64,000 bases of DNA from contig NC_091220.1 in NCBI RefSeq assembly GCF_040958095.1, forward strand, positions 20,380,167 through 20,444,166, read 5' to 3'. Below, one piece after another: positions 2,332-64,000 of the stretch. The stretch comes from Procambarus clarkii (taxonomy: Eukaryota; Arthropoda; Malacostraca; Decapoda; Cambaridae). The position numbers and the translations under genes are program-made. Numbering within the stretch: position 1 is the stretch's first letter; every line of letters starts with the position of its first letter. The notes under the pieces are model-generated. The model was not told where the DNA came from. It did no database searches and saw only the letters and a program-made list of their open reading frames with translations.

Positions 2332-4050
2332 CCTAATTCCTCTTTATTGGTCCTGGGGGCGCCGTGGTCCCCTCTCCGTTGGTCCTGGGGGGCGCCGTGG
2401 TCCCCTCTCCGTTGGTCCTGGGGGGCGCCGTGGTCCCCTCTCCGTTGGTCCTGGGGGCGCCGTGGTCCCCTCTCCGTTGGTCCTGGGGGGCGCCGTGGTC
2501 CCCTCTCCGTTGGTCCTGGGGGCGCCGTGGTCCCCTCTCCGTTGGTCCTGGAGGCGCCGTGGTCCCCTCTCCATTGGTCCTGGGGGGCGCCGTGGTCCCC
2601 TCTCCATTGGTCCTGGAGGCGCCGTGGTCCCCTCTCCATTGGTCCTGGGGGGGCGCCGTGGTCCCCCTCTCCATTGGTCCTGGGGGCGCCGTGGTCCCCC
2701 TCTCCATTGGTCCTGGGGGGCGCCGTGGTCCGCCTCTCCATTGGTCCTGGGGGGCGCCGTGGTCCGCCTCTCCATTGGTCCTGGGGGGCGCCGTGGTCCC
2801 CCTCTCCATTGGTCCTGGGGGGCGCCGTGGTCCCTCTCTCCATTGGTCCTGGGGGGCGCCGTGGTCCCCCTCTCCATTGGTCCTGGGGGGCGCCGTGGTC
2901 CGCCTCTCCATTGGTCCTGGGGGGGCGCCGTGGTCCGCCTCTCCATTGGTCCTGGGGGGCGCCGTGGTCCGCCTCTCCATTGGTCCTGGGGGGCGCCGTG
3001 GTCCGCCTCTCCATTGGTCCTGGGGGGCGCCGTGGTCCGCCTCTCCATTGGTCCTAGGGGGCGCCGTGGTCCGCCTCTCCATTGGTCCTGGGGGGCGCCG
3101 TGGTCCCCCTCTCCATTGGTCCTGGGGGGCGCCGTGGTCCCCTCTCCATTGGTCCTGGGGGGCGCCGTGGTCCCCCTCTCCATTGGTCCTGGGGGGCGCC
3201 GTGGTCCGCCTCTCCATTGGTCCTGGGGGGCGCCGTGGTCCGCCTCTCCATTGGTCCTGGGTGGCGCCGTGGTCCCCCTCTCCATTGGTCCTGGGGGGCG
3301 CCGTGGTCCCCCTCTCCATTGGTCCTGGGGGGCGCCGTGGTCCGCCTCTCCATTGGTCCTGGGGGGCGCCGTGGTCCCCCTCTCCATTGGTCCTGGGGGG
3401 GCGCCGTGGTCCCCCTCTCCATTGGTCCTGGGGGGCGCCGTGGTCCCCCTCTCCATTGGTCCTGGGGGGCGCCGTGGTCCCCCTCTCCATTGGTCCTGGG
3501 GGGCGCCGTGGTCCGCCTCTCCATTGGTCCTGGGGGGCGCCGTGGTCCCCCTCTCCATTGGTCCTGGGGGGCGCCGTGGTCCCCCTCTCCATTGGTCCTG
3601 GGGGGCGCCGTGGTCCGCCTCTCCATTGGTCCTGGGGGGCGCCGTGGTCCGCCTCTCCATTGGTCCTGGGTGGCGCCGTGGTCCCCCTCTCCATTGGTCC
3701 TGGGGGGCGCCGTGGTCCCCCTCTCCATTGGTCCTGGGGGGCGCCGTGGTCCGCCTCTCCATTGGTCCTGGGGGGCGCCGTGGTCCCCCTCTCCATTGGT
3801 CCTGGGGGGGCGCCGTGGTCCCCCTCTCCATTGGTCCTGGGGGGCGCCGTGGTCCCCCTCTCCATTGGTCCTGGGGGGCGCCGTGGTCCCCCTCTCCATT
3901 GGTCCTGGGGGGCGCCGTGGTCCCCCTCTCCATTGGTCCTGGGGGGCGCCGTGGTCCCCCTCTCCATTGGTCCTGGGGGGCGCCGTGGTCCGCCTCTCCA
4001 TTGGTCCTGGGGGGGCGCCGTGGTCCCCCTCTCCATTGGTCCTGGGGGGG
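2332..4050. repeat. GC-rich 34-bp minisatellite, about 50 units
   Basis: Units of about 34 bp contain GGTCCTGGGGGGCGCCGTGG followed by a TCCCCCTCTCCATT-type end. Variants include CCGTT versus CCATT (the former only near the left edge), CCGCC versus CCCCC, and G-run lengths of 5 to 7. 34 is not a multiple of three, so long open frames occur on both strands by composition alone. Each unit has GGCGCC, a self-complementary hexamer. Confidence 0.95.
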
Positions 4051-4189: not shown

Positions 4190-4342
4190 ACCTCCACCGC
4201 GTAACGTGGTGGAGGTGGGGTCCCTTGATTGTTTCAAGCGCGGGTTGGACATGTATATAAGTGGGTTTGGGGGGTTATAGATAGGAGCTGCCTCGTATGG
4301 GCCAATAGGCCTTCTGCAGTTACCTTTGTTCTTATGTTTCTT
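4190..4342 (+). mobile_element. LINE D 3' tail
   Basis: Starts in the coding end (GTGGAGGTGGGGTCCCTTGA, VVEVGSLDCFKRGLDMY) and runs to GGCCAATAGGCCTTCTGCAG and TTCTTATGTT. It is a 5'-truncated copy 140 bp right of the minisatellite, in the same orientation as the copy at 1399. Confidence 0.75.
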
Positions 4343-4700
4343 AAACACCCTCAACACTCCTCCAATATTGTTGAGTGCCTGAGGTAGTTAGAGAGCTATA
4401 AGTATCTCACACCATTTCTTACAGAGCACTCACATATATATAGTATTGGAGAATGTGTACTAATTTGTTTACATACATCATAAATCGTTAATTCGTGCTT
4501 TTTTTTTCTTTTGAGTGATTGCTCCTCTGCAGGACCTAATTTCCTGAAGTGTGTGTGTGCTTTACAAGAAAGAATGGATTATCTAGGCCCAAATTCTGTA
4601 GGACATGTATATTGAAATATTCAAAACTGTCCTGACTTTAGTATACGCAAAATTAAAAAAAAATAGCAGCTACACAGAAATCACAATAGTGTGATGCATC
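4343..4700. other. No recognisable feature
   Basis: AT-rich sequence with no supported gene, repeat or RNA. Confidence 0.5.
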
Positions 4701-5079: not shown

Positions 5080-5470
5080 TTAAATATACAAGAGTTTTTA
5101 CGTTCTTCGTGGGAGACATCTCCCGTCACGCAGGGTGCAGTCGCACCTCCACGGCTCAAAAGGGCCACCACTTACGGGCTATTCATGCCCGTGCCACCTC
5201 TTGGGTGGCTTAATCTGTATCAATCTGTCAATCTTACATTCTTGAACAGCCACTAGCACGCGTAGCGTTTCGCGTTTCGGGCAGGTCCTTAATCCTATGT
5301 TCCCTGGAATACGACCCGCCAAATCGTTTAACAACCAGGTAGCCATTCACTGTTGGGTGAACAGAGGCAACAGTTAAGGATTGACGCCCTGTAAATCCTT
5401 CCCCGGCCAGGATACGAACCCAGTGTCGAAACGCCAGGTTAGTGTCTTACCACTACACCACGGGGACTGT
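5080..5470 (-). mobile_element. tRNA-derived SINE S1, interrupted by a hairpin element
   Basis: The tRNA-like head is at 5405-5470 on the minus strand (GTGGTGTAGTGGTAAGACAC, then GGGTTCGTATCC as box B). The body matches the copies at 18768-19036 and 57948-58135. The 3' end holds the GCCACTAG.ACGCG.AGCGTTTCG motif (5253-5285) shared with LINE tails. The tail is split by a 126-bp insertion at 5108-5233. Confidence 0.75.
5108..5233 (+). mobile_element. HP-2 hairpin-chain retroposon inserted in SINE S1
   Basis: Flanked by TTACGTTCTT (5098-5107) and TTACATTCTT (5234-5243), a 10-bp duplication with one mismatch. Uninterrupted S1 copies at 18790 and 57973 show the empty site. It contains GGGAG-ACAT-CTCCC, GGTGC-AGTC-GCACC, ACGGGC-TATTCAT-GCCCGT and GCCACC-TCTTG-GGTGGC hairpins, and ends GGCTTAATCT. 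It lacks the CAGTATCA hairpin present in the copies near 17.9 kb. Confidence 0.7.
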
Positions 5471-10090: not shown

Positions 10091-10202
10091 TACACACATC
10101 AATAATCTTTTGTGTCACAAGTGATCAACAAGAGGCTCACAACAGTCACTATACAAGGCACTTTACATCTATGGTGAGTCACACAGTTACTAGTCTTGCT
10201 GC

Positions 10203-10620
10203 ACACCCACCCAACTGGGCGGCAGCTTTACAGTCATGTGCTCCACACCCACCCAACTGGGCGGCAGCTTTACAGTCATGTGCTCCACACCCACCCAACT
10301 GGGCGGCAGCTTTACAGTCATGTGCTCCACACCCACCCAACTGGGCGGCAGCTTTACAGTCATGTGCTCCACACCCACCCAACTGGGCGGCAGCTTTACA
10401 GTCATGTGCTCCACACCCACCCAACTGGGCGGCAGCTTTACAGTCATGTGCTCCACACCCACCCAACTGGGCGGCAGCTTTACAGTCATGTGCTCCACAC
10501 CCACCCAACTGGGCGGCAGCTTTACAGTCATGTGCTCCACACCCACCCAACTGGGCGGCAGCTTTACAGTCATGTGCTCCACACCCACCCAACTGGGCGG
10601 CAGCTTTACAGTCATGTGCA
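10203..10620 (-). repeat. 42-bp minisatellite inside LINE C, 10 units
   Basis: AACTGGGCGG recurs every 42 bp from 10213 to 10591, giving ten near-identical units. The related LINE C copy at 58447-58530 has only two. On the minus strand each unit reads HMTVKLPPSWVGVE (14 codons), but several frames are open because the unit is a multiple of three and has no stop. Confidence 0.95.
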
Positions 10621-11174
10621 TGCATTACCTACAGTAAGCAAATGACTCGCTGCCGGCGCCATTGCTAGCTGGCCGCACACGGATTTGTTCCCGGAAAAAA
10701 CTCACGATTCTGAGCACCCATCAGCTCCATTCATCGCGGTTTTATGGGGAAGAATACATCAGTACTCCAAGACCCAGACAATATCTTGTTTTGAAGGAAA
10801 CAATTCCGATTTCGTCTACAATAGACGGAGAAACATCGTTGTTGATTACCTGCTGCCCAGCTGACTGGTATTCTGCGCAACCCAGTACGCAGGCGACCCA
10901 AACTCTCGTACCGGACCGTATCACTGACCAGGTCACTTAGAGTCCTACCCTGAAGGGCGAGGCGATACCCTGCGGGCAGCGCCACAAGGGGGCACCTTAG
11001 AAGGTGTACCTGAGCCTGACAGGGAAAGGTAGACCAAACAACTCATTTAGGTGTTAGGTATCCCTGATTCCATCCGGGGGAATCATTCTACGACCTCCGT
11101 TGGAGGGGAATGAATTTCTCCAGGCCTAGGAGTGTCTCAGGCATTAGGTAGGGCAGTGATTCGGTCCTCACTAC

Positions 11175-13020
11175 GTGGAGAGAGTCATGGGGAAGGCTAA
11201 GAGAAAGAGGCAATGGAGGCAGCTTTCAGACGAGGAGGGACGGTGGACCGATGTGCAGCAGGCACCGAAGAAAACTGCTATCGAGGCTTCACCACTTGCT
11301 TCTACCAGCAAGACAGCAGACGTAATGGACCTAGAGAGGATAGCATCAGTCTCTCACCAGCCAGTGTCAGACAATGCTTCTCTGTCCACAACACAGCCAC
11401 AGGACAACAGTATGAGACAGGAGAGGACACCATCAGCCTCACACCAGACATCGCCAGACTGCACAGCTTCCAAAATTCAAGATAATGCAGACCGACCACT
11501 TTCCTACAGCATATGGAGTAGAAACGGGAATGGAAAAAGAACAATCAGAGCTCAAACTTTCCATTACAGTCAACCTGAAAGTATAAATAATAACACCACC
11601 ACAAGACCAACAGACTGCAAATTACTTAGAAAAAGTAAGAGTCCTGCAAGGGAAACCTGTATGCTTGGAAAAGCTGGACCCTTCAGAAAGACGCACACGA
11701 GTCCTGCTTTTGGGATAACCAATCGACTTTCCCCTGGATCCAGTACTAGAACACAAGCAAATCCTGAATGCGGAACGATGCCGCACAAAAGTAGACAAGG
11801 TAGCGACACGTCAGGTTCTGGTCACCGTCATGGGACATGTGCCAGAAACATTCAGTCTTGGAAATTGGGGAACATACCGACAGAGACCATACGTCCCAGA
11901 ACCCCTGCGCTGCTTCAGGTGTCAGAAATACGGCCACCATCAATCACGCTGCACAGGACAGGAGAGATGCGGAGTGTGCAGCCTGAGACATCCAACCAAA
12001 GACTGTATAGCCAAGCATAAGGCAAACCAGGCTACAACAGCCAAATGCCCAAATTGTGGAGGCAAACATCCTGCCTGGAGCACAACCTGCTCTGCACGGA
12101 AAGAAAAGATGCAGACAGCTCAGGCCAGGATAAACACACAGACCAGCACCACATACACCAACACCAACGTCTGGAACACTCGTGCACAGCCACAACAGAC
12201 ACCCACTCTCACAGAGCAAAACTTCCCGAATATATTAATTTCAAATCAGAAAATACACAAACGTGCTGCAGAAATACAGCAAATGCAAAAGAGTAAAAAA
12301 CAATTACTTTCGGAATCAACACAACAGATATACAGTTTTACCCCCGCGGTCCAGCTGAAAAACATGGTGAACATCATGGCAGAGACCGTTATCAATTGCC
12401 TACAGGTGACGCAGAACGCCTCACAGCAACAGACTCAAGAAATCACTTGTGTGATAATGGAGAAGATCGTGCAGCAGACCACAGTTACACAAGAAGTAGA
12501 CAGTCTGAGACAAGACGGAGCACAAGAGGACAAACAACGCAACATGGACATACAGACTACCAACAACAGTCAGGGTAGTCAAGACACCAGAACATCAACA
12601 TTTACAACAGCAACTGTAAGAAGCAGTGACCACCCAAGATCAACAGAATCTTACAACACAAGAGTCAGACAACAACAGCCAATGCAGTCTAATATGCAAC
12701 AACCCCAACAAAGACGTATTGAACAGCAGAGATGCACAGGTTCCAACAACACAAGAAACAGCCACGAGCAATCAATGCAGTCCGACATGCAGCAATACCA
12801 ACAACAAAGTGATGGACCACAGTTATGCACAGATTCCAACAACGTCGGGGATGACCACGAACAATCAGTGCAGTCCGACATGCAGCGACACGACTTGCGA
12901 GGTGGAGAATATAGAGGTCGATCCCGAAGAAGAGTTCTGGTAGAACAGGCAACACCAACCGTACACCGTCGTCTAGCCATTACGAATACTGCAGTGGAAC
13001 ATACAAGGTCTTGGAAATAA
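11175..13020 (+). pseudogene. LINE ORF1, gag-like nucleic-acid-binding protein (frameshifted)
   Basis: The product would coat LINE RNA in the particle used for retrotransposition. Translation starts at 11175 in one frame (to 12020) and continues in another (11830-13020), so a frameshift lies between about 11830 and 11990. The second part has three zinc knuckles: CFRCQKYGHHQSRC (CX2CX4HX4C), CGVCSLRHPTKDC and CPNCGGKHPAWSTTC, the triplet seen in ORF1 of Jockey/I-type LINEs. The N-terminal third is basic (GKAKRKRQWRQ). The C-terminal third is rich in Q, N and T, with local QQ runs. The end overlaps the ORF2 start in another frame. Confidence 0.8.
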
Positions 13021-16000
13021 AAACCACACACTTCAGGAGGCTGCAATCAGTAAGAAAGCAGATATAATCGTTTTGGAAGAAACTCTTTTTCCAGCCACGA
13101 AATCCTTCAGATTAGCTGGATATCAGCACTATGTTATACCTGTATGAGCAGGGGAGACAAAGAGGATTAATGACCCTAGTCAGGAACACAATACCTGGCA
13201 AGAAAATAGACCCAGTTTCATGTGGGGATGGAGTAGAGGTATTAGCAGTAATAGTGAATATGGCTAATATTGAGCTCCTCATATACAACGTCTACAAGCC
13301 CCCTAGACGTAAACTAGAAGCAGAGGCAGTGCTTGCCTTGGCCACGCAGGAAAATGTAATTATTGCTGGGGATTTTAATGGTCATCATCCAGAGTTAGGT
13401 GCGACTGGGCCAGCCAATGCAGATGGGCGCCACTTAGCTGCAGCTCTGCGAGAAGTACCTGAAATTACACTTCTCAACACTGGGTAACCCACTCACATTC
13501 TAGGAGGTTCCCTTGTTCTTACATTCATCTCAACAGCACTCAAGCATCAGGCGAAGTGGGAAGTAGACCCAGTGATCACCAGTGACCACTATGCTACTGT
13601 CACAACACTAAACATAGAACGTCCTCCTACACCACCCTACACAACCTAGGTGGAATTTAAGAAAGGCCAATTGGAATATATACCAAGAAGAACTTGAAAA
13701 ATGGTATGCAACGTACACGCCACCTGAGGATTTGAACATACACGAGACCAATCTGTAGGAAGCCATTGCAGCTGCTGCAAACAAAGCTATTCCAATCATT
13801 ATCACAGGAAACACAAAACGAAAGAACTATTGGTTCTATAGTAATGAAGTTAAAGAACAGAACCACAGAGTCAACATCTTCAGAAAACATCTAAAGAGAA
13901 ACCCCACACCAGAAGGAAGAACTTTGCTAAGAGCGGTGATATCTGAAGCAAGACGAGTTTCTAGAGAAGTAAAGGAGGCAAGATGGTTTGAGTGTTGTCA
14001 AACTCTAAATGAACACAGTAGTCTTGGCAAGATACGGGGTCAGATTAAAACTATATCAGGTCGACCAGCCCGACCACAGGCATGTATTCAACCATTGCAG
14101 GAGGCTGAGAGACTTGCTCTCCAATTTGCAGAAAGAACAGCTTCATATCAGCTTCCTGCAATGGTCCGGAGGCAGCAAGAACACTTAAAACAAGAGAGGA
14201 TGACAGTCATTCATGAGGGCATAGCTATAAATGACGAATGTGACTGTCCCTTCACCAAACAGGAACTAATCAGGGCCAAAAAAGGTGGTAAGGACACTGC
14301 ACCAGGTGCTGATAACATTACATACTCAATGGTCGCACACACAGTTCCTGCTGGAGAACAAGGAATATTGGACGTCATCAGTGCATCTTGGCAGCAAGGC
14401 AAACTACCAACCTCTCGGAAGAAAGCAGACATCATGCCGATTCCTAAGCCGAAAGAACCTGGCAATTACAGACCCATTTCATTAACATCATGCATTAGTA
14501 AAACTGCAGAACGGATGGTCTTAAATAGGCTACTGTGGAAGACTGGACACCTGCATAAACACATATTTGGCTTCACTAGAGGAGTAGGTACTGCAAACTG
14601 CATAGCAACATTACTAGGAACAGTTAACTCAGGTCCAGCTATAGTGATCTTCCTTGATCTAGAAAAAGCATTCGAACTTACAACTCCGCAAGCAATTTTA
14701 CACACCTTAGTTAAAAAAGGTGTAAAGGGAAAAATTCTAGCATGGATTCAAGATTACTTAAGTCACAGGTATGCCAGAGTAAAGTTGCAAGGACAAGTGT
14801 CGGACTACCACTTGCATGAGAATGGGACTCCACAAGGAGGAGTCCTCAGTCCTAGTCTTTTTAACATCTTTATGGAAAACCTTGTTACCATGACATTTAC
14901 AGAAGGGGTTAAATTGCTATGCTGATGATATAGCATTAGTCATTACAGGTCCTTCACTTCTAAATACAGCACAAGGTGCATTAGATAAAGTAACATCTGA
15001 ATGCAGCGTTTTAGGGCTAAAAATATCTGCACAGAAGTCTAAGGTAATGAGACTAGGCGGCAACACTCCAGACAGGCACCTACGCATTCAAGACATTAAC
15101 CTTCAGTGGGTTACACAATATCAATATCTCGGAGTGTGGATAGATTTTAAAATGACATTCAACAAGCAAATTCAATATCTAAAGGAGAAAGCAAAATCAC
15201 GACTGAATATAATGAGAGCAATCACAGGGCCCCGTCTAGGAGCGGGACACAGAGTGTTGAGAATGTTTTACATACACGCCGTTCGTTTCCTAATTGATTA
15301 TGCAGCGCCTGCCTTACTCACTCTTTCCCCTTGTCAGTGGGCAAACGTTGAGGTTATTCAAAACAATGCGAATCATAACAGGAGCTCCCAGATGGACTAA
15401 AATACTGAACCTAAGACTAGAAACCAAGCTAACGTCGATTGAAATAAGGGTAAAAGGGATTGCTGCGTGCATGCTGACCAAGATATTGACTAGACCTAGA
15501 ATCAGTTCACTTAAAGATATAATCACTGGAGCACTAACTCTGGACAGAAGAGCCTCCAATAGCAACAGGTGGACCCATTATGCGATAAACACCATCAATA
15601 CATTCGATATAACAAACACAGTCACTGAGAAGGGTGTCGACGACATACATGCAGACTGTTATGCAAGCCCCTTGGGAATCTCTGCCAGCAGACTTTAAGA
15701 TTATGGTTCTTGAAGGAAAAAAGAACCAGACTAATCCTCATCTGCTACGTAACATTGCACAGATGCATATAGAAGCAAACATGGCATCCGACAGCTTCAC
15801 ATACTTCACAGATGGATCAGTAGACCAGCAGGGACAAGAAACAGGAGCTGCAGTTATAGCAGGAAACTGTAAATAGTTGGAGGACTCTCAAATGGGTGTT
15901 CGACTTTACAAACAGAGATGCTAGCCATTCAAAAGGCTTTGGAACATGCTCTTGCTCAACACCGACAACATGTTATCATACATACAGATTCGAGAACCGC

Positions 16001-16586
16001 CATTGAAACCTTGCAACAAGAACACATATGTGATAACATACACCTGATCACAAATGTCATATCATTAATGCAAACACTCAAACGACAAGGCCGTCGGGTA
16101 CTTATCAACTGGGTGCCAAGTCATGTGGGAATAATAGGAAATGACATTGCAGACGAAGCTGCAAAACTTGCAACTAAGAGAAGAAATGTAGATATTTACA
16201 TACCACAGAGTCTATCACAGATTAAGAAAGTAATTAGAAACAGAGCAATGCAAAAGATGTATAGTGACCACAACACAGCAGTTGCAACATCAGGATCTGC
16301 GGGTTGGTACAAGAATTCAACCAACTACGAACCACTTAGTTTGATGAAAGTGAGCAGTAGAGCAACAGAAGTGCGCTTACTTCGCATTAGGCTTGGATAC
16401 CCATGTGCATGGGAAATAGGCTTACAGGTTCCGGAAGATGAGAGGAAATGTCAACACTGTGGAGAAATGGCCGACAGACCACTGAAACATTATCTAACAC
16501 AGTGCACAGTTACAAACCCATTAAGATTTCAACTTAGATTCAACAGAGTAGAAGAAGTTGTTAAACACATGGCAAAATCTTACTGA
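12985..16586 (+). pseudogene. LINE ORF2: endonuclease, reverse transcriptase, RNase H (frameshifted)
   Basis: The enzyme nicks target DNA and copies LINE RNA. It begins near 12985 with QWNIQGLGNK. The endonuclease shows NVYKPPR and IIAGDFNGHHPELG (13131-13487), then decays to about 13920. The reverse transcriptase runs from 13924 with YRPISLTSCISKTAERMVL, motif A FLDLEKAFE, motif B GTPQGGVLSPSLFNIFM, then a frameshift at about 14920 into YADDIAL. A second shift lies near 15370. RNase H follows with FTDGSVD (about 15810), TDSRTA (about 15985) and NWVPSHVGIIGNDIADEAAK, interrupted by a stop at 15874. The terminal knuckle is CQHCGEMADRPLKHYLTQC. All catalytic blocks are recognisable but lie in at least five reading-frame pieces. 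Confidence 0.88.
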
Positions 16587-16708
16587 AGCGACCATACGAG
16601 TATTAAATACTCATACTCCGCCCAAGTAAAACAGAAACAAGCAACACTTAGTGGGCCAGCCAGAGGCTTAGGGCCCACGCAGGAATATCCCTGCAAAAAA
16701 AAAAAAAA

Positions 16709-16990
16709 GCAAATTTTGGATACTTCGCTAAGATTTCGGGCAGCACATCATTATGAATGAAGTACTTACACATTTCTTGGACACTATTGATGGTGTTATC
16801 TCTAAATTCCACGATTTTTTCACATTCCATTATATAATGACGCAAAGTATGCGAATAGTTCTGCTGACAGAGTTTACATTTAGTCAAATCTACATCAGCA
16901 GATGTTACAAATTCCCAGAGGTATTTGTAGCCGAGCCTAAGCCTAGCCTCTAAACATTTTTTGTCAATTTTACTGGAATTACCCACTTAA
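16709..16990 (-). mobile_element. LINE C, portion upstream of the nested insertion
   Basis: The minus strand encodes LGYKYLWEFVTSADVDLTKC, then CKLCQQNYSHTLRHYIMEC (a zinc knuckle) and EILAKYPKFA. After KFA the apparent frame runs into the poly(A) of the inserted LINE and is artificial. The true continuation is at 10643 and below. Confidence 0.8.
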
Positions 16991-17455: not shown

Positions 17456-17681
17456 TACTGGGGATCAGGAATTAGACCAGAAAGTTTTTGACTAATTAGA
17501 GGGCCATTCTCCCCCCCCCCCTCACCCCTTTAAAAAAACTATGGAAGATAAGGTGAGTGGCAGTGTTTGGTGAATGTGAGATTACTGACCACTCTCAGAT
17601 AACGCAATACGATACTCATGGCTTCTACTGACCTCAGCCGTCTCCTAATCTATTGATAAGCGTGAACTAACAGCTTATCAG

Positions 17682-17766
17682 CTTATTTTACGGGTTCACC
17701 CTAGCCCGTGCTACATGGACACTTCGTCCTGAGTAGCCAAATCTGAAACAACAACAACAGCAGCAG
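17682..17766 (+). mobile_element. HP-1 hairpin retroposon with 11-bp TSD
   Basis: Flanked by CAGCTTATCAG at 17671-17681 and 17767-17777. It contains ACGGGTTCACCCTAGCCCGT, a hairpin with arms CTAC.GGAC and GTCC.GAGTAG, and an (AAC)n/(CAG)n tail. It has no protein frame. Confidence 0.7.
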
Positions 17767-17835
17767 CAGCTTATCAGTCTCAGGTCAATGACTCCTCACC
17801 TTGTTATATATAACTCACTGCAAAGCTTGTGACTC

Positions 17836-18170
17836 CACGGGAGACATCTCCCGTCACGCAGGGTGCAGTCGCACCTCCACAGATCTCCAGTATCAGCTCT
17901 TGATACTGGTAATGGCTCAAAAGGGCCACCACTTACGGGCTATTCATGCCCATGCCACCTCTTGGGTGGCTTAATCTTTATCAATCATCAATCGTTAGCA
18001 GTGTTCGACCTGGTCACCACTTGGTCCGGGAGACATCTCCCGTCACGCAGGGTGCAGTCTCGCCTCCACAGATCTCCAGTATCAGCTCTTGATACTGGTA
18101 ATGGCTCAAAAGGGCCACCACTTACAGGCTATTCATGCCCGTGCCACCTCTTGGGTGGCTTCATCTTCAT
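17836..18170 (+). mobile_element. Two HP-2 hairpin-chain copies in tandem
   Basis: Copies at 17836-17993 and 18026-18170 run in the same orientation, 32 bp apart. Each reads as consecutive hairpins: GGGAG-ACAT-CTCCC, GGTGC-AGTC-GCACC (G to T at the loop edge in the second), CAGTATCA-GCTCT-TGATACTG, GGCTC-AAAA-GGGCC, GGGC-TATTCAT-GCCC and GCCACC-TCTTG-GGTGGC. The 3' ends are TTAATCTTTATCAATC and TCATCTTCAT. Confidence 0.75.
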
Positions 18171-18180
18171 CTTGCGACTC

Positions 18181-18321
18181 CCACGGGAGACATCTCCCGT
18201 CCACGAGGCTAACCATAGCCTGTGCTTCTTGCCCCGCTCCTGTGCCAGGTAAGTTACGGGCTCACCATAGCCCGTGCTACTTGGAACTTGTTCCGAGTAG
18301 CTTAATCTATAACAACAACAA
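18181..18321 (+). mobile_element. HP-1 hairpin retroposon, longest copy, 10-bp TSD
   Basis: Flanked by CTTGCGACTC at 18171-18180 and 18322-18331. Hairpins: 18183-18200 (ACGGGAG-ACAT-CTCCCGT), 18206-18221 (AGGCT-AACCAT-AGCCT), 18256-18275 (ACGGGCT-CACCAT-AGCCCGT) and 18277-18300 (arms CTACTTGGAA and TTCCGAGTAG). The tail is CTTAATCT then (AAC)4. It shares its 5' hairpin with HP-2, so the two are related families. Confidence 0.8.
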
Positions 18322-18331
18322 CTTGCGACTC

Positions 18332-18765
18332 GCCCTAAACGCTATGCTGGTACGTGGCCTTGCAAAAAATGTGCCATTTGATGACCAAAATTTGTACTGA
18401 CACAAGTAGTTCTATCCCATTTCCTCGGGGTGAACCGTTGACGTGAACCAGCATCTTCCCTCGTATTACTCTGATCCCTAACTGCAAGGCTTTCACTGGA
18501 AATGTTTTTTGCTGGACTGGAGCCAGATTCACGAAAGCACTTACGAACCTGTCCATCTTTTCTCAATCTTTAGCGACTTTGTTTCCAATTATTGAACAGT
18601 TAATGAGCTCCGAAGCACCAGGAGGCTGTTTATAACAATAACAGTTGATTGGCAAGTTTTCATGCTTGTAAACTGGTTTAACAAATGTAACCAAAGCCGT
18701 CAAAGATTGAGGAAAGATGTACACGTTCGTAAGTGCTTTCGTGAATCTGGCCCCTGGTCTTGAAG
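18332..18765. other. No gene recognised
   Basis: 18323-18365 has a diverged copy of the LINE-tail motif (CGCCCTAAACGCTATGCTGG). 18520-18570 and 18715-18755 share an inverted segment (CCAGATTCACGAAAGCACTT versus AAGTGCTTTCGTGAATCTGG), an inverted repeat about 180 bp apart. Confidence 0.5.
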
Positions 18766-18767
18766 AT

Positions 18768-19036
18768 ACATTTTTTTTTTTTGAGATATATACAAGAGTT
18801 GTTACATTCTTGTACAGCCACTAGTACGCGTAGCGTTGCGGGCAGGTCCCTGGAATACGATCCCCTGCCGCGAAGAATCGTTTTTTCATCCAAGTACACA
18901 TTTTACTGTTGCGTTAAACAGAGGCTACAGTTAAGGATTTGCGCCCAGTAAATCCTCCCCGGCCAGGATACGAACCCATGACAAAGCGCTCGCGGAACTC
19001 CAGCCAAGTGTCTTACCACTACACCACAGAGACTGG
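18768..19036 (-). mobile_element. tRNA-derived SINE S1, near complete
   Basis: The minus strand runs from a tRNA-like head (GTGGTGTAGTGGTAAGACAC; box B GGGTTCGTATCC) through a body with TTAACGCAACAGTAAAATGT and a GCGGCAGGGGATCGTATTCC block, to the LINE-like tail (GCCACTAGTACGCGTAGCG in plus orientation) and a poly(A) end (poly(T) at 18769-18781). Confidence 0.78.
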
Positions 19037-25735: not shown

Positions 25736-28700
25736 CTAATTAGAAATAGAAATAATGAAGATTGTAGTACACTACTGTAATCCTAAATATACTGTATAGC
25801 AAGTAAGTAATCATGAAAAGAAAAGTCAAAGCCCAGAAAGCTATATAGATAATGTACAGCAAAATATGCATGTTACTTTTAACAGAGGCAAGAGCTGGTA
25901 TTATTTACCGTCCTAAATAATTTGGCTTTCTAGGTCACCACTTTGGACAAATTAGGTTAGTCAGTTTTGGAAATTTTAGATCTTGGTTTAGGTTACAAGT
26001 GGCCCTTATATAAGACTGCTGTTTGTCAGAATTTGAGCAGTAGGCAAGAAAACCAGCTTGTAATAATGAAATACCTCTTACTGGTTGGGCTTCAGTGACT
26101 CCCTTGTCTTTTCCCCCCTCTACCAGGTGAGTTGAATTGTTGTCATAGGCTTTGGCCTGATGAATGTTGACAAGGGGAGCCAGCAACTCCCAATAATGCT
26201 GCCATCTGTCAATGGTCAGCTGTAACTAGAGGGTTTTGAACCAACAACTGGATTTGCAGATTTCTTTGCTGCTTGAATTTTTCTCCGTGAACCTTTAAGT
26301 TGCCTATTTTGCTTCGCTTACACATTGGATGTTTCCTTGGTAAGGATAATTGTAACACTTCCCTGCTTTTGTGAGTAGGGAGAAGCTCGGGAATCTGGTC
26401 TCCAGTAGCTGGTGTAAAGGACTTCTAGTGCAAATGACTCAATATGTGCGGAGCTATCTCAGTGTGGCTAGGCTACAGGGTTGTTCATTATAGTCACCAA
26501 CAATGACCAAAAATTATTCCATTATTTCCGTCTAAGAGAAAAAGTTTCTATTACAATGCTGCTAAAAATCATTATTAAGCAAGTTAAATTAAGTAACAAT
26601 TTTCAATATTATGGGATAAAATTTGAGAAATTTGTACTCCAGAAAAAATACAGTAACATATGTAAACACTAAGGCTTGTAAAGTATATTTAAAGAGTAAG
26701 CATGACAAGATAAAAAAAAAGGTGCTCCTATAAAATAAAAATGATATAGCCTGCTTTGCTTAATATAAAAAATAAACTTGTCCTTTTATAAATGTATTTC
26801 ACGAAAAACCAGACTACGAATTCAAATAGATATTTTAGCAGCTTAAGGTCAACTCACACCTTGAATCAAATTGCACATCTCCTTTGGAATGCATAGGTTA
26901 AATACATTAGTTTTAGTTGTTACAGAGATTTTGCTCATTGTTCTTAATCATAACTTTATGGGATGAGATTTAATATATATAGTTAATATATATTGCTCAT
27001 GATCGCTGCAAAACTAACGCTCAATACACATTACAGCATATTCAGCTATTTACAAATAGGACTAAGCAAAAATCATAAACTACTTACCTGAAGTAAGTCT
27101 TGGTAATTATGAAAGCTAGAAACCAGTTTAGTACAGAGATGACAGCAGCGGCCTTTTCCCTCGCTGCTTGTGGGAACATTTCCCCCACCAGCACCCACGT
27201 GATCGGCCCCACGCCGAACGAATAAGCGCTGACATAGACGATCGCAGCAAGTATTGCAACCCAACTTCCTCCTGCATTATGACAGAAAATATATATACTG
27301 TACAGTACATACATATATTTAATCATGTTGCTGATAGATACCATTACTTAGTATTTCTGAATTCTGTACTCCTTCCCGGCTTGGTGCCTTCTTTTGAAAT
27401 TCACTTACTTAACCACTGTGTTGCGCCGAGTTTATTGTGAAATTCCCCATGCGCATGAAATCAAGTGTTCCCAAAAATGATTTTTTCTTATTAAAATGAT
27501 GAATTCCCTTCCCTAAATATGTCTATGTAAAAATAAATGTCTAATTCCACTTACTTTGGGTGTGGGGACGTGGACACAATGTGTGCCGTGACGTCATCAG
27601 GGGCTGGTCGCCCGTGCATGAAGCTCCCAGACAAGGTCGCCCGGGCCATTCAAGCACCGCGTGTTGCCACAAATATATTTTCAATTATTTGTTCTATGTA
27701 TTTCCAATGCAGTTTTATTTTTTTTATCATCTATGATGCATATTTGTGTCCTTTAGAATATGTATATGGTAGAATGTTCATAATGTTCCATGGCACTGTG
27801 ATACATGTGTCAGTAATGTGTCCACAATAAATGTTTATTGTCGCAATATTACTTGTTAAAAATTCACTAAAATTACAATATGTACAGTTTCACACACTAT
27901 TTACACAGTAACACACTGTATTACACACTCAGTACTTCGGAAGTGAGTAATAACCAACGAAGTAGTCCAAGGTACACAGCGCGACTTCACTCCCGTTGCA
28001 CCAGGTACAGATAGATTTTTGCTTAGTGTTTCTTCGTTCTGTGTGCTTACAAATAACGCACTCACGTACACCCTTGGCTTTAGTACTTGTAGGTGGTATG
28101 TAGCCAAGCTTGTAAAGCATAAAGTAGCATTGAAAAGATTATAGGAAAAGATCATTTTGTAAGGTAGTCTTGAAAAGATCGCTTTGTAAGCTGAATCTAA
28201 GTGGGTGGCTGAATCTAATCCTGTGGCTTAGATTCAGCCACCCTCGAAGAGTTTCCGTCAATCTAAAAGTGATTCAGGCATTCTCGAAGAGATTCAGGCA
28301 TGCTGGAAGAGATTCAGCTATTCTTGAAAATATCTATGGAAAACACCACCATGGAAGCTGGTAACACTGTTCATCTATGCTAATTGTATCAGATGCATCG
28401 TCACTGAACACAGAAAACGATTCATCTATTTATCATCTACAGTGGTACCTCGGAATACGAGTGTCCCTGAATACTAGCAGGATTTGCTCGGAAAATGTGC
28501 TCGGTAGGCGAGGGTTACCTCAGAACACGAGTTAGCCGATACGTGTACAGGCCGAACTAGCGCATGGTGGTAAGGCGATCATCGCCCCTCACCCCTCAGT
28601 TTACCAGTTTAAATATTTCAACTAGTTGAAATTATGGAAGCTTAAAACAAGAATATACTTATGGTACCTTAAAACCCAGCATTGAATGTAATGAAATGCC

Positions 28701-40325: not shown

Positions 40326-40705
40326 AAGACAGAACACGAAACAAAGGTTTAAATTAGATAAGTTTAGATTTCGGAAAGACCTGGGTAAATTCTGGTTCGG
40401 TAACAGGGTTGGTGATTTGTGGAACCAATTACCGCATGACGTGGTGGAGGTGGGCTCCCTTGATTGTTTTAAGCGTGGGTTGGACATGTATATAATTGGG
40501 ATTGGTTGGTTATAAATCGCAATCTTTGCTTGTTACAGCCCCGCTCCTGTGCCAAGTAAGTTCATTACGGGCTCACCATAGCCCGTGATACTTGGAACGT
40601 TTTGTTCCCAGTAGCTGAATCTTAAACAACAACAGGTTATAAATAGGAACTGCCTCGTATGAGCCAATAGTCTTTCTGCAGTTACCTTTATTCTTATGTT
40701 CTTAA
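40325..40705 (+). mobile_element. LINE D 3' tail, split by HP-1
   Basis: Begins AAGACAGAACACGAAACAAA directly at the minisatellite end. Encodes KFRFRKDLGKFWFGNRVGDL and GSLDCFKRGLDMY. After the HP-1 insertion it resumes with GAGCCAATAGTCTTTCTGCA and TTCTTATGTT. Confidence 0.8.
40518..40634 (+). mobile_element. HP-1 hairpin retroposon in LINE D, 10-bp TSD
   Basis: Flanked by GGTTATAAAT at 40508-40517 and 40635-40644. The LINE D copy at 1655-1670 shows the empty site. It has hairpins ACGGGCTCACCATAGCCCGT and TACTTGGAAC/GTTCCCAGTA, then CTGAATCT and (AAC)n. Confidence 0.85.
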
Positions 40706-48484: not shown

Positions 48485-51400
48485 CTAAACGATAAGATAT
48501 ATATTTTTATTGAATCCATTTAAAAATCGAGTTGGACTTACAAGACTTTGTATATATACACATTATTTCAGTTTATTATGTACTGGGCACTATGTAGTGT
48601 TTATTAAACAAGGCCTGTAGTTATTTTTGTAATAATTGTAATTGTAGTTATTTGTAGCACTGTATATTAGGTGTCATTATACTTGAGTATGACTGATGTT
48701 GACTGTCAACCATTCTGGTCACAACACTGAGGTCACCTGGGGTCACAACACTGAGGTCACCTGGGGTCACAACACTGAGGTCACCTGGGGTCACAACACT
48801 GAGGTCACCTGGGGTCACAACACTGAGGTCACCTGGGGTCACAATACTGGGGTCACCTGGGGTCACAACAGTGGTCACCTGGGGTCACAACACTGTGGTC
48901 ACCTGGGGTCACAACACTGAGGTCACCTGGGGTCACAACACTGAGGTCACCTGGGGTCACAATACTGGGGTCACCTGGGGTCACAACACTGTGGTCACCT
49001 GGGGTCACAACACTGTGGTCACCTGGGGTCACAACACTGTGGTCACCTGGGGTCACAACACTGTGGTCACCTGGGGTCACAACACTGTGGTCACCTGGGG
49101 TCACAACACTGTGGTCACCTGGGGTCACAACACTGTGGTCACCTGGGGTCACAACACTGTGGTCACCTGGGGTCACAACACTGTGGTCACAACACTGTGG
49201 TCACCTGGGGTCACAACACTGTGGTCACAACACTGTGGTCACCTGGGGTCACAACACTGTGGTCACCTGGGGTCACAACACTGTGGTCACCTGGGGTCAC
49301 AACACTGTGGTCACCTGGGGTCACAACACTGGTCACCAGGGGTCACAACACTGTGGTCACCAGGGGTCACAACACTGTGGTCACCTGGGGTCACAACACT
49401 GTGGTCACCTGGGGTCACAACACTGTGGTCACAACACTGAGGTCACCTGGGGTCACAACACTGTGGTAACCTGGGGTCACAACACTGTGGTCACCTGGGG
49501 TCACAACACTGTGGTCACCTGGGGTCACAACACTGTGGTCACCTGGGGTCACAACACTGTGGTCACCTGGGGTCACAACACTGTGGTCACCTGGGGTCAC
49601 AACACTGTGGTCACCTGGGGTCACAACACTGTGGTCACCTGGGGTCACAACACTGTGGTCACCTGGGGTCACAACACTGTGGTCACCAGGGGTCACCTGG
49701 GGTCACAACACTGTGGTCACCAGGGGTCACAACACTGTGGTCACCTGGGGTCACAACACTGTGGTCACCTGGGGTCACAACACTGTGGTCACCTGGGGTC
49801 ACAACACTGTGGTCACCTGGGGTCACAACACTGTGGTCACCTGGGGTCACAACACTGTGGTCACCTGGGGTCACAACACTGTGGTCACCTGGGGTCACAA
49901 CACTGTGGTCACCAGGGGTCACAACACTGTGGTCACCTGGGGTCACAACACTGTGGTCACCTGGGGTCACAACACTGTGGTCACCTGGGGTCACAACACT
50001 GTGGTCACCTGGGGTCACAACACTGTGGTCACCTGGGGTCACAACACTGTGGTCACCTGGGGTCACCTGGGGTCACAACACTGTGGTCACCTGGGGTCAC
50101 AACACTGTGGTCACCTGGGGTCACAACACTGAGGTCACCTGGGGTCACAACACTGAGGTCACCTGGGGTCACAACACTGAGGTCACCTGGGGTCACAATA
50201 CTGGGGTCACCTGGGGTCACAACACTGTGGTCACCTGGGGTCACAACACTGTGGTCACCAGGGGTCACAACACTGTGGTCACCTGGGGTCACAACACTGT
50301 GGTCACCTGGGGTCACAACACTGTGGTCACCTGGGGTCACAACACTGTGGTCACCTGGGGTCACAACACTGTGGTCACCTGGGGTCACAACACTGTGGTC
50401 ACCTGGGGTCACAACACTGTGGTCACCAGGGGTCACAACACTGTGGTCACCTGGGGTCACAACACTGTGGTCACCTGGGGTCACAACACTGTGGTCACCT
50501 GGGGTCACAACACTGTGGTCACCTGGGGTCACAACACTGAGGTCACCTGGGGTCACAACACTGAGGTCACCTGGGGTCACAACACTGAGGTCACCTGGGG
50601 TCACAATACTGGGGTCACCTGGGGTCACAACACTGTGGTCACCTGGGGTCACAACACTGTGGTCACCAGGGGTCACAACACTATGGTCACCTGGGGTCAC
50701 AACACTGTGGTCACCTGGGGTCACAACACTGTGGTCACCTGGGGTCACAACACTGTGGTCACCTGGGGTCACCTGGGGTCACAACACTGTGGTCACCTGG
50801 GGTCACAACACTGTGGTCACCTGAGGTCACAACACTGTGGTCACCTGAGGTCACAACACTGAGGTCACAAACTCAGAGACCAAGTACATGACATGAAAAT
50901 AGCCTTATCAAATAATTGATCTAAACAGATAAGCAGCCAAGTGTACAGAAATGTCAACACATTATAGCGTGTCAACGCCCCTTACCTTGGTAGCTAGTGG
51001 AGGAGTTACACTGCCCGTAGCACTGCATAAACTTTTCCACAGCAAAATTATTTTTACATTTTCCGGACTCCGGGTTAAATTTCTTAAAGATGCCCACAGT
51101 GTCTTGGGGAGGCATTTCCTCTGGCACACACACTATTGGAAGTCATAATTTTGTTATAAGACAATTCATAACATTCTCTTTGTCTATTTTCCACATCCAG
51201 TTGTATAACAAATACAAAACATTCACAAAAGGTTACAGGAAAGTTGGGTAAACCTCTTTGTTTTTAACTTATTTAATAAGAAGTAAATTAAAACTATTAA
51301 TGAAAAGTCTGGCGCTTTTAGTAGATCTTTCCTATAAGTGGTGTTACTCTTGTCCCCACTTCCACGTTCTCACACGTACTCTTTATGACTAGCACCCGCT

Positions 51401-52599: not shown

Positions 52600-55487
52600 A
52601 AAATAAATAAATAGTTTATTCAGGTAAGGTACATACATACAAGAGGTTTTACAAAAAATGATAGATTTATAGATAGAGCTAGTACATACAATGCCTAAAG
52701 CCACTATTGCGCAAAGCGTTTCGGGCAGAAGCTATCTCTCAGCTATCGTTGCGACAAGGGTTGTCGCTGACCCACTGATCGCCCACGGAATATGTGTATC
52801 AAAATACTGTACACACAAAAAAGTCAAGACCAGCAATCAACAGCCAATTAATGCACAACTATATTCTACCCACTTCAAGACTCCGAACCAATATAGAAGC
52901 ATCAAGAGGAAGTATGGGCCAATAGGCCCTCTGCAGTTACTTCCATTCTTATGCTCTCATATCCAATTAATACCCACAGTTTCGTGTTCTATCTTGTATT
53001 TGTCACAAGTTTGTTCACCTCACCCAAATGCGAGTACAAGTATGACGGATTTGCTGACTGTGTTTTTTTTTTCCCAAACTACGGGCTCACCATAGCCCAT
53101 GCTACTTGGAACTGTTTTTTCCAAGTAGCAAATCTTAAACAACATGACTCTGTTTAGTGTTTACAGGTTACAATTGTGTGTGTAAACTAAAGTCTTTGAA
53201 AATGTAATAAGTTATTACAAAACGCGTTCAAGTGTCGCGTCAGACTAGAAATAGAAATGAATGTTTTAGAATTGATTTTTCAATTACCATCGACAGTAAA
53301 AAGAAACATAAGAAATATTGAGAAAATTCGTGTAAGAATTATTAACCTTACTTTTTTGGTCATATTTAAATATATCACACACATGTATATACGACACACA
53401 TGTATATTCCACACACATACATGTATATACCACACATGTACATGTATATACCTGTACCACACACATACATTGTATATACCACATACACACACACACATAC
53501 ATGTACTGTATATACCACAGTTAAGTATATCGACTCATTAATGGGGTTTTATAATGAAAAATGTGTACAATTTAAATGAATTAACACAATTTCGATATTA
53601 TTTTCAAGATAAAAAATCATGTGAATATGAGATAGATACAGGATGTCTATTAAAGGTTTAGCATGCACACACGCATATATTAAATGCAACACAGGCTAAG
53701 AATTGTATAAAGTTTACTTACATTTTTGTTACACGTATAGGTGGTGCAGTTGTCGTCTGAGTTCCAGATCTTGCCCACTGGTATCGTCTCATTCTTCCAA
53801 GGACACCCCACCTACCACAGTGTACACACTTATCATTAAACAAAGTTTTCAAAGTTTTGAGCCAAATAATTGTTGTTGAGAATACCACATACATGTGATA
53901 GAGATACATATGTGGGAAGCCATCCTCTTAAAATTACAAGGGCTTATAACAATTGCTGGGTCAAACTTTCCCATATGTTTGGCAGGACAAAAAATTTCCT
54001 GTTTTGTACCATTCATTTTGTAGAGAGCATGAAATATATACTGAAATGCATGCTTACACATTCCTAGGCTTACTAAAGCGCGTATGTGTACTATATTAGT
54101 CCTGAGAAACAGTATATTTGGCATAGGATTGCTAGGTCAGATCAGGTTCATTCAGTTACATTTCCAATTTTGTAGAATACCATTTTGTGAACTTTTGGAG
54201 GTTCAACAGTATATTTTATTACATGTCAGCACACAATTGATGTTATCTTGAGGTTATCTTGAGATGATTTCGGGGCTTTAGTGTCCCCGCGGCCCGGTCC
54301 TCGACCAGGCCTCCACCCCCAGGAAGCAGCCCGTGACAGCTGACTAACCCCCAGGTACCTATTTACTGCTAGGTAACAGGGGCATTCAGGGTGAAAGAAA
54401 CTTTGCCCATTTGTTTCTGCCTCGTGAGGGAATCGAACCCGCGCCACAGAATTACGAGTCCTGCGCGCTATCCACCAGGCTACGAGGCCCCCTCGTAGAC
54501 TGGTTGTAAGTACTGCCACTTTAGGGGGACAGGATGACGCGTGGTTAGGCCCAACTGGCAGTTGAATTAAGACACAAGTCTATGCAACAGTCCCTGATAA
54601 ACTGACCGAGTTGCCTGCTTGTAAAACTTGTACACAAATCAACTGAAGGTAGAAAGACTGACCCATAGAGCTACAGATAAACTCCAACCCACCTAGGTTA
54701 GTACAGCTAAGGATAGTAATTACTCGCCCTCACACATTCACCCCATTTACCCCTTCCCCTCCACTTCACACTCATCCCAACCCGCATACACACTTTATCC
54801 CCCCCCCATATTCACCGCATTATCCCCCCCCCCAAACACACACATCATCCTCCCCTCCCCCCTCCACATACACACACAATCATCCTCTCCCCCCCCCCCC
54901 CACACACACACCACATCATGTAGTGTGCTAGAATACACAAACTGGAAAAGGTGCAAAGACATGGAAGTAAATAGTTCCCAGAACTGAAGGACAAGAGCTA
55001 CAAGGAGAGGTTAGAGGCATTAAATATGCCAAAACTAGACGATAGAATAAAACGAGGCGATATGATCACTACATACAAAATAGTAACAGGAATCACTAAA
55101 ATTGATCGGGAAGAATTCCTGGGACCTGGAACTTCAAGAACAAGAGATCATAGATTTTAACTATGTAAACAAAGTTGCCGAAGGAATATAAGTAAATTAA
55201 TTTTCGCAAACAGAGTGGTAGACGGTTGGAACAAGTTAGGGGAGAAGGTGGTGGAGGCCAAGACCGTCAGTAGTTTCAAAGCGTTATATGACAAAGAGTG
55301 CTGGGAAGACGGGACACCACGAGCGTAGCTCTCATCCTGTAACTACACTTAGGTAATTACACACACACACATACTCACACACACACACATTCAGTAATTA
55401 CATATTATAACCCATTGCATACTTTATTCCCCAAAAAGTCACTTTTGGGGAATGGTCACTTTTATCAACGTGTGTGTGTGTGTGTGC

Positions 55488-60203: not shown

Positions 60204-60538
60204 CTGGCCGATGAAACATAGAGTCATTTCACCGAGGATTTTATCAATTTGCATAAAATAGCCAAGTTTTGCTCACAATAAAGCCATATAATACAGAGTA
60301 TATAGAATAATTATACACAATATGTTACCAGTGTGACGGTAACGATATGTCAATATATCTGCAATGAGTGGCTAAAACTATATATTATGGATACATGATT
60401 CTAAAACAAAAATACACCTCTGATTATTGAAAATAAATCACTAATGTTTAATGAACATTCACAAATGTCAATATAATTTTATTCAAAATTATATGAAGAA
60501 GTAACATTAGAAGTACTGACTTTTTTGTAGCTGATGTG

Positions 60539-63500: not shown

Positions 63501-64000
63501 CTAGCTGTAGTGTTGACCATTAACCACACTAGTCCTAGCTGTAGTGTTGACCATTAACCACACTAGTGCCTAGCTGTAGTGTTGACCATTAACCACACTA
63601 GTCCTAGCTGTAGTGTTGACCATTAACCACACTAGTCCTAGCTGTAGTGTTGACCATTAACCGCACTAGTTCCTAGCTGTAGTGTTGACCATTAACCACA
63701 CTAGTTCCTAGCTGTAGTGTTGACCATTAACCACACTAGTCCTAGCTGTAGTGTTGACCATTAACCACACTAGTCCTAGCTGTAGTGTTGACCATTAACC
63801 ACACTAGTCCTAGCTGTAGTGTTGACCATTAACCACACTAGTCCTAGCTGTAGTGTTGACCATTAACCACACTAGTCCTAGCTGTAGTGTTGACCATTAA
63901 CCACACTAGTCCTAGCTGTAGTGTTGACCATTAACCACACTAGTCCTAGCTGTAGTGTTGACCATTAACCACACTAGTCCTAGCTGTAGTGTTGACCATT
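60539..64000. repeat. 34/35-bp minisatellite, about 100 units, running off the window
   Basis: Unit TGTTGACCATTAACCACACT then AGTCCTAGCTGTAG (34 bp), or AGTTCC/AGTGCC (35 bp). ACCGCAC variants cluster in threes and mark a higher-order period near 346-348 bp. It lies upstream of exon A, so probably in an intron. Confidence 0.97.

What the first reader, a model, noticed from the sequence alone, without database searches (positions are those of the whole stretch)
17682..18331. HP-1: a tiny hairpin-built retroposon with four independent target-site duplications
Seen directly: four copies (17682-17766, 18181-18321, 40518-40634, 53066-53144) each sit between their own 10-11 bp direct repeats (CAGCTTATCAG, CTTGCGACTC, GGTTATAAAT, TGACTSTGTTT). 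All share a GGGCT-loop-AGCCC type hairpin, a second hairpin with a CTAC/GTAG base, an (A/C)TGAATCT or TTAATCT block and an (AAC)n tail. There is no tRNA, 7SL or 5S head that I can see. This makes a mobile RNA of about 80-140 nt that is nearly all structure. Inference: it is moved in trans by a LINE that recognises the structure or the AAC tail.
Basis: partly seen in the sequence, partly recalled or inferred. Interest (0 to 1): 0.8.

Follow-up and report, generated by a model that had tools for sequence, protein, structure and literature searches.

The report
Hairpin-chain retroposon in two sister families
Short stretches of what is probably animal DNA, made almost wholly of RNA hairpins, have been copied into new places in this genome, probably with an enzyme borrowed from another element, and no promoter-bearing head of a known kind was recognised in them.

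Summary
The four HP-1 copies exist at the stated places, each between 10-11 bp direct repeats; repeats this good turn up at 0.1-6% of 20,000 random sites. HP-1 is half of the story: the window also holds three copies of a sister family, called C0 here (5108, 17836, 18028). C0 is a chain of up to six hairpins and shares with HP-1 a 5' hairpin (in the one HP-1 copy long enough to show it) and the 3' layout: two abutting hairpins, AATCT, repeat tail. HP-1 ends in (AAC)n, C0 in ATC/AATC-like repeats. The joined flanks of HP-1 40518 match three uninterrupted LINE-like copies with one repeat each; C0 5108 has such empty sites too. These are real insertions with target-site duplications, best explained by target-primed reverse transcription in trans by a LINE. 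No tRNA, 7SL or 5S head was found, while the same search found the tRNA head of another element at 54418. No LINE 3' end examined in the window matches, and no relative was found in prokaryote and virus collections; animal genomes could not be searched. Partner, promoter, copy number and spread stay open. A new variant of a known kind: SINE-like, head unknown, built of hairpin modules.

The parts
17682..17766 (+). HP-1 copy 1, 5'-short (H5 + H6 + AAATCT + AAC/AGC tail); TSD CAGCTTATCAG at 17671-17681 and 17767-17777
18181..18321 (+). HP-1 copy 2, longest copy: H1 (18183-18200), worn second copy of the H5 hairpin (18206-18221), linker, H5 (18256-18275), H6 (18276-18301), TTAATCT, (AAC)n; TSD CTTGCGACTC at 18171-18180 and 18322-18331
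   Evidence: in the minimum-energy fold of the whole copy the two H5-type hairpins pair with each other
40518..40634 (+). HP-1 copy 3, inserted in a LINE-like 3' region (CR1-like by eye); TSD GGTTATAAAT at 40508-40517 and 40635-40644; empty sites at 1515-1727, 4196-4344 (+) and 57407-57534 (-)
53066..53144 (+). HP-1 copy 4, 5'-short; TSD TGACTSTGTTT at 53055-53065 and 53145-53155
17836..17990 (+). C0 copy a: H1 17837-17854, H2 about 17861-17876, H3 17887-17909, H4 17913-17928, H5 17935-17953, H6 17954-17970, TTAATCTTTATC and AATC-like tail
18028..18170 (+). C0 copy b, same order of hairpin sequences; lacks the first three bases; no TSD of its own
17826..18180 (+). Unit C0a-spacer-C0b flanked by CTTGTGACTC (17826-17835) and CTTGCGACTC (18171-18180); the second is also the left TSD of HP-1 copy 2
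5108..5233 (+). C0 copy at a separate locus; lacks hairpin H3 as one 33-nt gap; TSD TTACGTTCTT (5098-5107) / TTACATTCTT (5234-5243); lies in a repeat that also forms the 3' flank of LINE-type ORFs; empty sites at 57969-58124 and 18760-18951

Best explanation
HP-1 and C0 are two sister families of a short, non-coding, non-autonomous retroposon. Its RNA is a chain of hairpins that ends in two abutting hairpins (H5, H6), AATCT and a short repeat tail. A LINE-encoded protein most likely binds this 3' end, nicks a target, starts reverse transcription at the nick on the tail, and leaves target-site duplications of 10-11 bp; early stops give the 5'-short copies. Shown: the copies, the duplications, empty sites at two of five loci, strong folding, the shared ends of HP-1 and C0, and no known head in the libraries tested. 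Inferred: a LINE acting in trans, recognition of the hairpins, and that both families use the same machine (both entered the same CTTGYGACTC site). How it is transcribed is unknown.
For: Direct repeats of 10-11 bp flank 6 units at 5 loci (4 HP-1, C0 5108, the C0 pair): three perfect, three with one mismatch; null 0.1-6% per site. Joined flanks of HP-1 40518 match three uninterrupted copies in the window at 87.5-89.3% identity, each with one GGTTATARAT; joined flanks of C0 5108 match 57969-58124 (77%) and 18760-18951 (71%) across the junction, each with one TTACATTCTT. (AAC)3 or longer occurs in the window only at three HP-1 tails (the fourth has two units) and never on the other strand. 7 of 7 copies fold better than 200 of 200 shuffles, z -2.57 to -7.39. 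HP-1 18181 and C0 share a 5' end (28-column local match; 0 of 2000 shuffle pairs as good) and a 3' layout (1 of 2000 as good). In H6 two pairs read U-A in HP-1 and C-G in C0. Of four copies with H1, three (5108, 17836, 18181) have it within two bases of the TSD, as a defined 5' end would; two of these three share one target site. Binding of the 3' stem-loop by the ORF2 protein is shown for zebrafish L2 LINEs in PMC4176376 (passages seen).
Against: None of the LINE 3' ends that I looked at in the window matches H5-H6-AATCT or has an AAC or AATC tail, so the partner is not shown. C0a and C0b have no TSD when taken singly, and C0b is preceded by a spacer of about 47 nt, so 1 of 4 copies with H1 does not start at a TSD. 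The fold is less tidy than the sketch: in the minimum-energy fold of HP-1 18181 the two H5-type hairpins pair with each other, and in that of C0b H1 and H2 do not form; the - strand of the two copies tested (of seven) also folds far better than shuffles. Covariation is mixed: cells with changes on both sides and the covariation score exceed 500 of 500 shuffles, but the number of such pairs (2) is reached by 263 of 500 and the number of further pair types (5) by 500 of 500; both changes coincide with the split between families. G-U cells do not favour a strand: 4 on +, against 3 that would be G-U on - (counted by hand). No convincing Pol III promoter. Only one window of one genome was read.
Confidence: 0.78

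Rival explanations
1. Internally deleted (bipartite) derivative of one LINE, such as an RTE: the 5' hairpins come from that LINE's 5' UTR and H5-H6-tail from its 3' UTR. It would still move in trans, so this overlaps with the best explanation; what differs is the origin.
For: Such bipartite families are called common for RTE elements, and the hagfish SINE1-1_EBu, held to be mobilised by an RTE, has AAC microsatellites at its 3' end (PMC7245038, passages seen). A defined 5' end plus a conserved 3' end fits.
Against: No LINE with these ends was seen in the window; the clade of the window's LINEs was not tested (6 of 10 ORFs scanned have an RVT_1 domain). The hagfish family has TSDs of about 17 bp, not 10-11.
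Confidence: 0.3
2. The copies are only 5'-truncated 3' ends of a long LINE whose 3' UTR is a hairpin chain.
For: 5'-short copies with TSDs and tails are typical of LINE insertion; 40518, 17682 and 53066 start at different points. C0b has further sequence upstream of H1.
Against: Three of four copies with H1 start within two bases of a TSD, at two target sites and in two families.
Confidence: 0.12
3. A non-autonomous DNA transposon (MITE-like or MULE-like) with 10-11 bp TSDs.
For: TSDs of about 9-11 bp are known for MULEs (recalled).
Against: No terminal inverted repeat is visible (5' CCACGGGAG, 3' AACAACAA); 5' ends vary and the 3' end is a simple-repeat tail of variable length (read).
Confidence: 0.04
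4. HP-1 18181 owes its H1 to the neighbouring C0 (conversion or template switch at a shared site), so H1 is not part of HP-1.
For: Only 1 of 4 HP-1 copies has H1, and it lies next to C0 at the same CTTGYGACTC site.
Against: The heads differ by two one-base indels just after H1, so it is not a fresh copy of the neighbour; H1 follows HP-1's own TSD.
Confidence: 0.2

Closest known systems
SINEs with GC-rich heads of unknown origin upstream of bipartite RTE sequence (two bird families mentioned in PMC7245038; passage seen)
   Same: Short, non-coding, 5' part of unknown origin, LINE-type 3' part
   Different: Those carry recognised RTE sequence; here no LINE sequence is recognised, the element is a hairpin chain, and two families share both ends with different tails
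SINE1-1_EBu of hagfish (PMC7245038; passages seen)
   Same: AAC microsatellite tail, LINE partner in trans, structured RNA
   Different: 7SL-derived head with boxes A and B, 282 bp, TSDs of about 17 bp, RTE partner identified
Stringent-type LINE/SINE pairs such as zebrafish ZfL2 and eel UnaL2 (PMC4176376, PMC3747384; passages seen)
   Same: A 3' stem-loop near the end as the recognised part, in LINEs that share it with SINEs
   Different: Two abutting hairpins here; partner LINE not found
tRNA-headed SINE-like element in the same window (about 54250-54490, - strand)
   Same: Short element with a repeat-like tail
   Different: Has a tRNA head found by Rfam and ARAGORN; HP-1 and C0 have none

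Membership tests
SINE (canonical: SINE1, SINE2, SINE3, SINEU) | Head derived from tRNA, 7SL, 5S or snRNA | tested here: not met
   ARAGORN and Rfam at gathering score on the whole window find only the tRNA at 54418. Rfam at E<=10 around all seven copies: 0 matches, 6 and 8 weak ones, all far below their gathering scores; none is tRNA, 7SL, 5S or spliceosomal snRNA, one is a snoRNA (E 5.8)
SINE (canonical: SINE1, SINE2, SINE3, SINEU) | Internal Pol III promoter (A and B boxes) | tested here: inconclusive
   Simple consensus scan of 5 of 7 copies: no copy has both boxes without mismatch. Partial matches: A-box-like TGGCTCAAAAG in both C0a and C0b (no mismatch); in C0b a B-like word with 3 mismatches 35 nt after an A-like word with 1 mismatch, and in the spacer a B-like word with 1 mismatch ahead of the A-like words; in HP-1 40518 a B-like word ahead of an A-like one, 1 mismatch each
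SINE (canonical: SINE1, SINE2, SINE3, SINEU) | Dispersed copies with target-site duplications and a simple-repeat 3' tail | tested here: met
   6 units at 5 loci with TSDs of 10-11 bp; empty sites at 2 of 5 loci
Stringent-type SINE/LINE pair | 3' end shared with a LINE of the same genome | tested here: inconclusive
   No match among the LINE 3' ends looked at in 64 kb; the rest of the genome is not held
Bipartite RTE derivative | 5' and 3' parts match one RTE LINE | not testable with these tools
   No animal genome or repeat library is held
MITE / DNA transposon | Terminal inverted repeats | tested here: not met
   Ends read by eye; no program was run for this
Retrozyme (hammerhead) | Hammerhead ribozyme motif | tested here: not met
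   No Rfam hammerhead match

The most novel reading that the evidence does not exclude
A class of mobile RNA that is nothing but a chain of exchangeable hairpin modules: no promoter head of known origin, modules lost or doubled as units (H3 missing as one block at 5108, the H5 hairpin doubled in HP-1 18181), only the last two hairpins and the tail needed for a LINE enzyme to move it, and transcription borrowed from the place of insertion.
Probability: 0.2. Interest if true: 0.72.

Novelty: new variant of a known kind. Interest (0 to 1): 0.46.

Why it matters
Short LINE parasites are usually explained as a Pol III gene fused to a LINE tail. A family with a clear insertion record and a defined 5' hairpin but no such head would suggest that structure at the 3' end plus some other source of transcript is enough. 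Two sister families with the same two-hairpin end and different tails would let one ask which part the LINE protein reads.

Tried and rejected
Relatives elsewhere: six exact-pattern scans of IMG/VR with HP-1 and C0 pieces gave 0 loci each. GTDB contigs gave 0 for an HP-1 piece and 6 for the 18-base hairpin H1, which I take as chance because the likeness in the six does not go more than about ten bases beyond the hairpin. The HP-1 copy 18181-18321 found nothing in phages and plasmids; C0 was not searched there. Two LINE proteins of the window found no relative in IMG/VR (5 and 3 pattern matches, none confirmed).

LINE partner: I compared by eye the 3' flanks of six LINE-type ORF stretches in the window and folded three LINE 3' ends. 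The RNase H-bearing element at 11.2-16.7 kb also ends in two abutting hairpins, but then poly(A), and without sequence likeness; a lead only. Another ends near a 14-mer repeat and others in A/T-rich stretches. LINE clades were not tested; 'CR1-like' is by eye.

Considered and set aside: chance repeats, MITE, retrozyme; the weak model match at 28303-28364 (E 1.3). An idea I dropped on checking: that the TSD mismatches are CpG decay. CTTGTGACTC/CTTGCGACTC fits; TTACGTTCTT/TTACATTCTT has the right letters, but the empty-site copies at 57969 and 18760 carry CA, so its direction is unclear; the third is not at a CpG.

Literature: ten searches listed no paper that I recognised as describing this element; most listings were judged by title and start of abstract, the library lacks most subscription journals, and no repeat library was at hand, so this says little. 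I recall, from no call, that sequences like HP-1 and C0 are frequent in decapod crustacean records; the host was not identified here.

Full report
Observation. Among 20,000 random site pairs at the same spacings, outside the large tandem arrays, scores of 10 or more occur in 0.37% and of 7 or more in 5.6%. Three HP-1 copies score 11, 10 and 10. The fourth, with one mismatch, scores 7 there because the search frame cut off its first base.

A sister family. A self-search of the window and alignments show three copies of a second element, C0. Its longest form is a chain of six hairpins: H1 GGGAG-acat-CTCCC; H2 GGTGC-agtc-GCACC; H3 CCAGTATCA-gctct-TGATACTGG; H4 TGGCTC-aaaa-GGGCCA; H5 ACGGGC-tattcat-GCCCGT; H6 GCCACC-tcttg-GGTGGC. 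Then come TTAATCTTTATC and AATC-like repeats. The copy at 5108 lacks H3 and its borders as one 33-nt gap and otherwise differs from 17836 at about three places. The longest HP-1 copy starts with the same H1, within one base of the same distance from its TSD, and ends in the same order: H5, H6, AATCT, tail. The 5' likeness is reached by 0 of 2000 shuffle pairs and the 3' likeness by 1 of 2000; a second, worn H5 hairpin inside HP-1 18181 is matched by 0 of 2000. H1 is seen in 1 of 4 HP-1 copies only, and that copy lies beside C0.

Insertions. Six units at five loci carry TSDs: four HP-1, C0 5108 and the C0 pair (17836-18170), which has one TSD around both copies and none around either alone. The TSD of the C0 pair (CTTGTGACTC/CTTGCGACTC) and that of HP-1 18181 (CTTGCGACTC twice) are the same site; CTTGYGACTC occurs three times in the window, all here. 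The simplest reading is that HP-1 later entered the same nick site, which suggests one endonuclease for both families (inference). Joined flanks give the best evidence. For HP-1 40518, three uninterrupted copies of the surrounding LINE-like 3' region (1515-1727, 4196-4344, 57407-57534; 88.7, 89.3 and 87.5% identity) run straight through the junction with one TSD copy. For C0 5108, copies at 57969-58124 (77%) and 18760-18951 (71%) do so; more distant ones that also cross the junction begin at 91, 6558, 16999, 38745, 58307 and 59336. For the other three loci (17682, the 17836-18321 cluster, 53066) no paralogous empty site was found in the window.

Structure. 7 of 7 copies fold better than 200 of 200 dinucleotide shuffles, z from -2.57 to -7.39. 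The folds are not all as sketched: in HP-1 18181 the two H5-type hairpins pair with each other in the minimum-energy fold, and in C0b H1 and H2 do not form. The - strand, tested for two of seven copies, also folds far better than shuffles, z -3.55 and -6.50. On the 3' part of all seven, 93.7% of cells pair, against 23-46% when the partners are slid. Two H6 pairs change U-A to C-G on both sides between HP-1 and C0. Cells with such changes and the covariation score exceed 500 of 500 shuffles; the number of such pairs (263 of 500 reach it) and of further pair types (500 of 500) do not. All three breaks in H5 on that alignment are at CpG sites and look like decay (reading). So the case is good for a folded element and modest for selection on the fold.

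Head and promoter. ARAGORN and Rfam on the window find one tRNA, at 54418 on the - strand. It heads what looks like an ordinary tRNA-SINE with a CAAGATAAC-like tail, so the search does find a head where one exists. Around HP-1 and C0, Rfam at E up to 10 gives nothing or weak matches far below their gathering scores. In five of seven copies scanned no A box plus B box pair without mismatch was seen; the partial matches are listed in the membership table. A perfect A-box-like word in C0 is expected by chance about once in 15 copies of this length (hand estimate). Two HP-1 copies have T4 or more in the H6 loop (40518, 53066), which would tend to stop Pol III; they may simply be worn.

Partner. 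Of 10 ORFs scanned with Pfam, 6 have a reverse transcriptase domain and one an RNase H domain. None of the LINE 3' ends looked at resembles H5-H6-AATCT, and (AAC)3 is found only at HP-1. The hagfish SINE1-1_EBu carries AAC repeats and is held to use an RTE (PMC7245038, passages), a hint towards RTE, though its TSDs are longer. LINE proteins of the L2 clade bind the stem-loop of their 3' tail (PMC4176376, passages).

Verdict. Real, inserted by a mechanism that leaves TSDs and a repeat tail, probably moved in trans by a LINE. It fails the head test of canonical SINEs, so I do not file it as SINE1, 2, 3 or U; it works like a SINE. It is a new variant of a known kind as far as these tools reach, with the caution that animal genomes and repeat libraries could not be searched.

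Noticed in passing
window about 54250-54490, - strand: What looks like an ordinary tRNA-headed SINE: tRNA-Thr-like head, body of roughly 150 nt, CAAGATAAC-like tail.
   Followed up: partly
window 11160-16710, + strand: LINE-type stretch with reverse transcriptase and RNase H domains; its 3' end folds as two abutting hairpins followed by poly(A).
   Followed up: partly
window 10197-10619 and 58448-58534: The same 42-bp minisatellite unit at two places in opposite orientation (10.1 and 2.1 copies).
   Followed up: no
window 60538-64000, 48717-50868, 2339-4049: Long minisatellite arrays with units of about 35, 24 and 34 bp.
   Followed up: no
window 5172, 17688, 17933, 18122, 18254, 40565, 53079: All seven HP-1/C0 copies lie on the + strand; for five loci on one strand chance is about 1 in 16. 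Unexplained.
   Followed up: no
window 17981-18027: Spacer of about 47 nt between C0a and C0b, of unknown origin; it may be a further 5' module, flanking DNA carried along, or a read-through remnant. It holds a B-box-like word with one mismatch.
   Followed up: no
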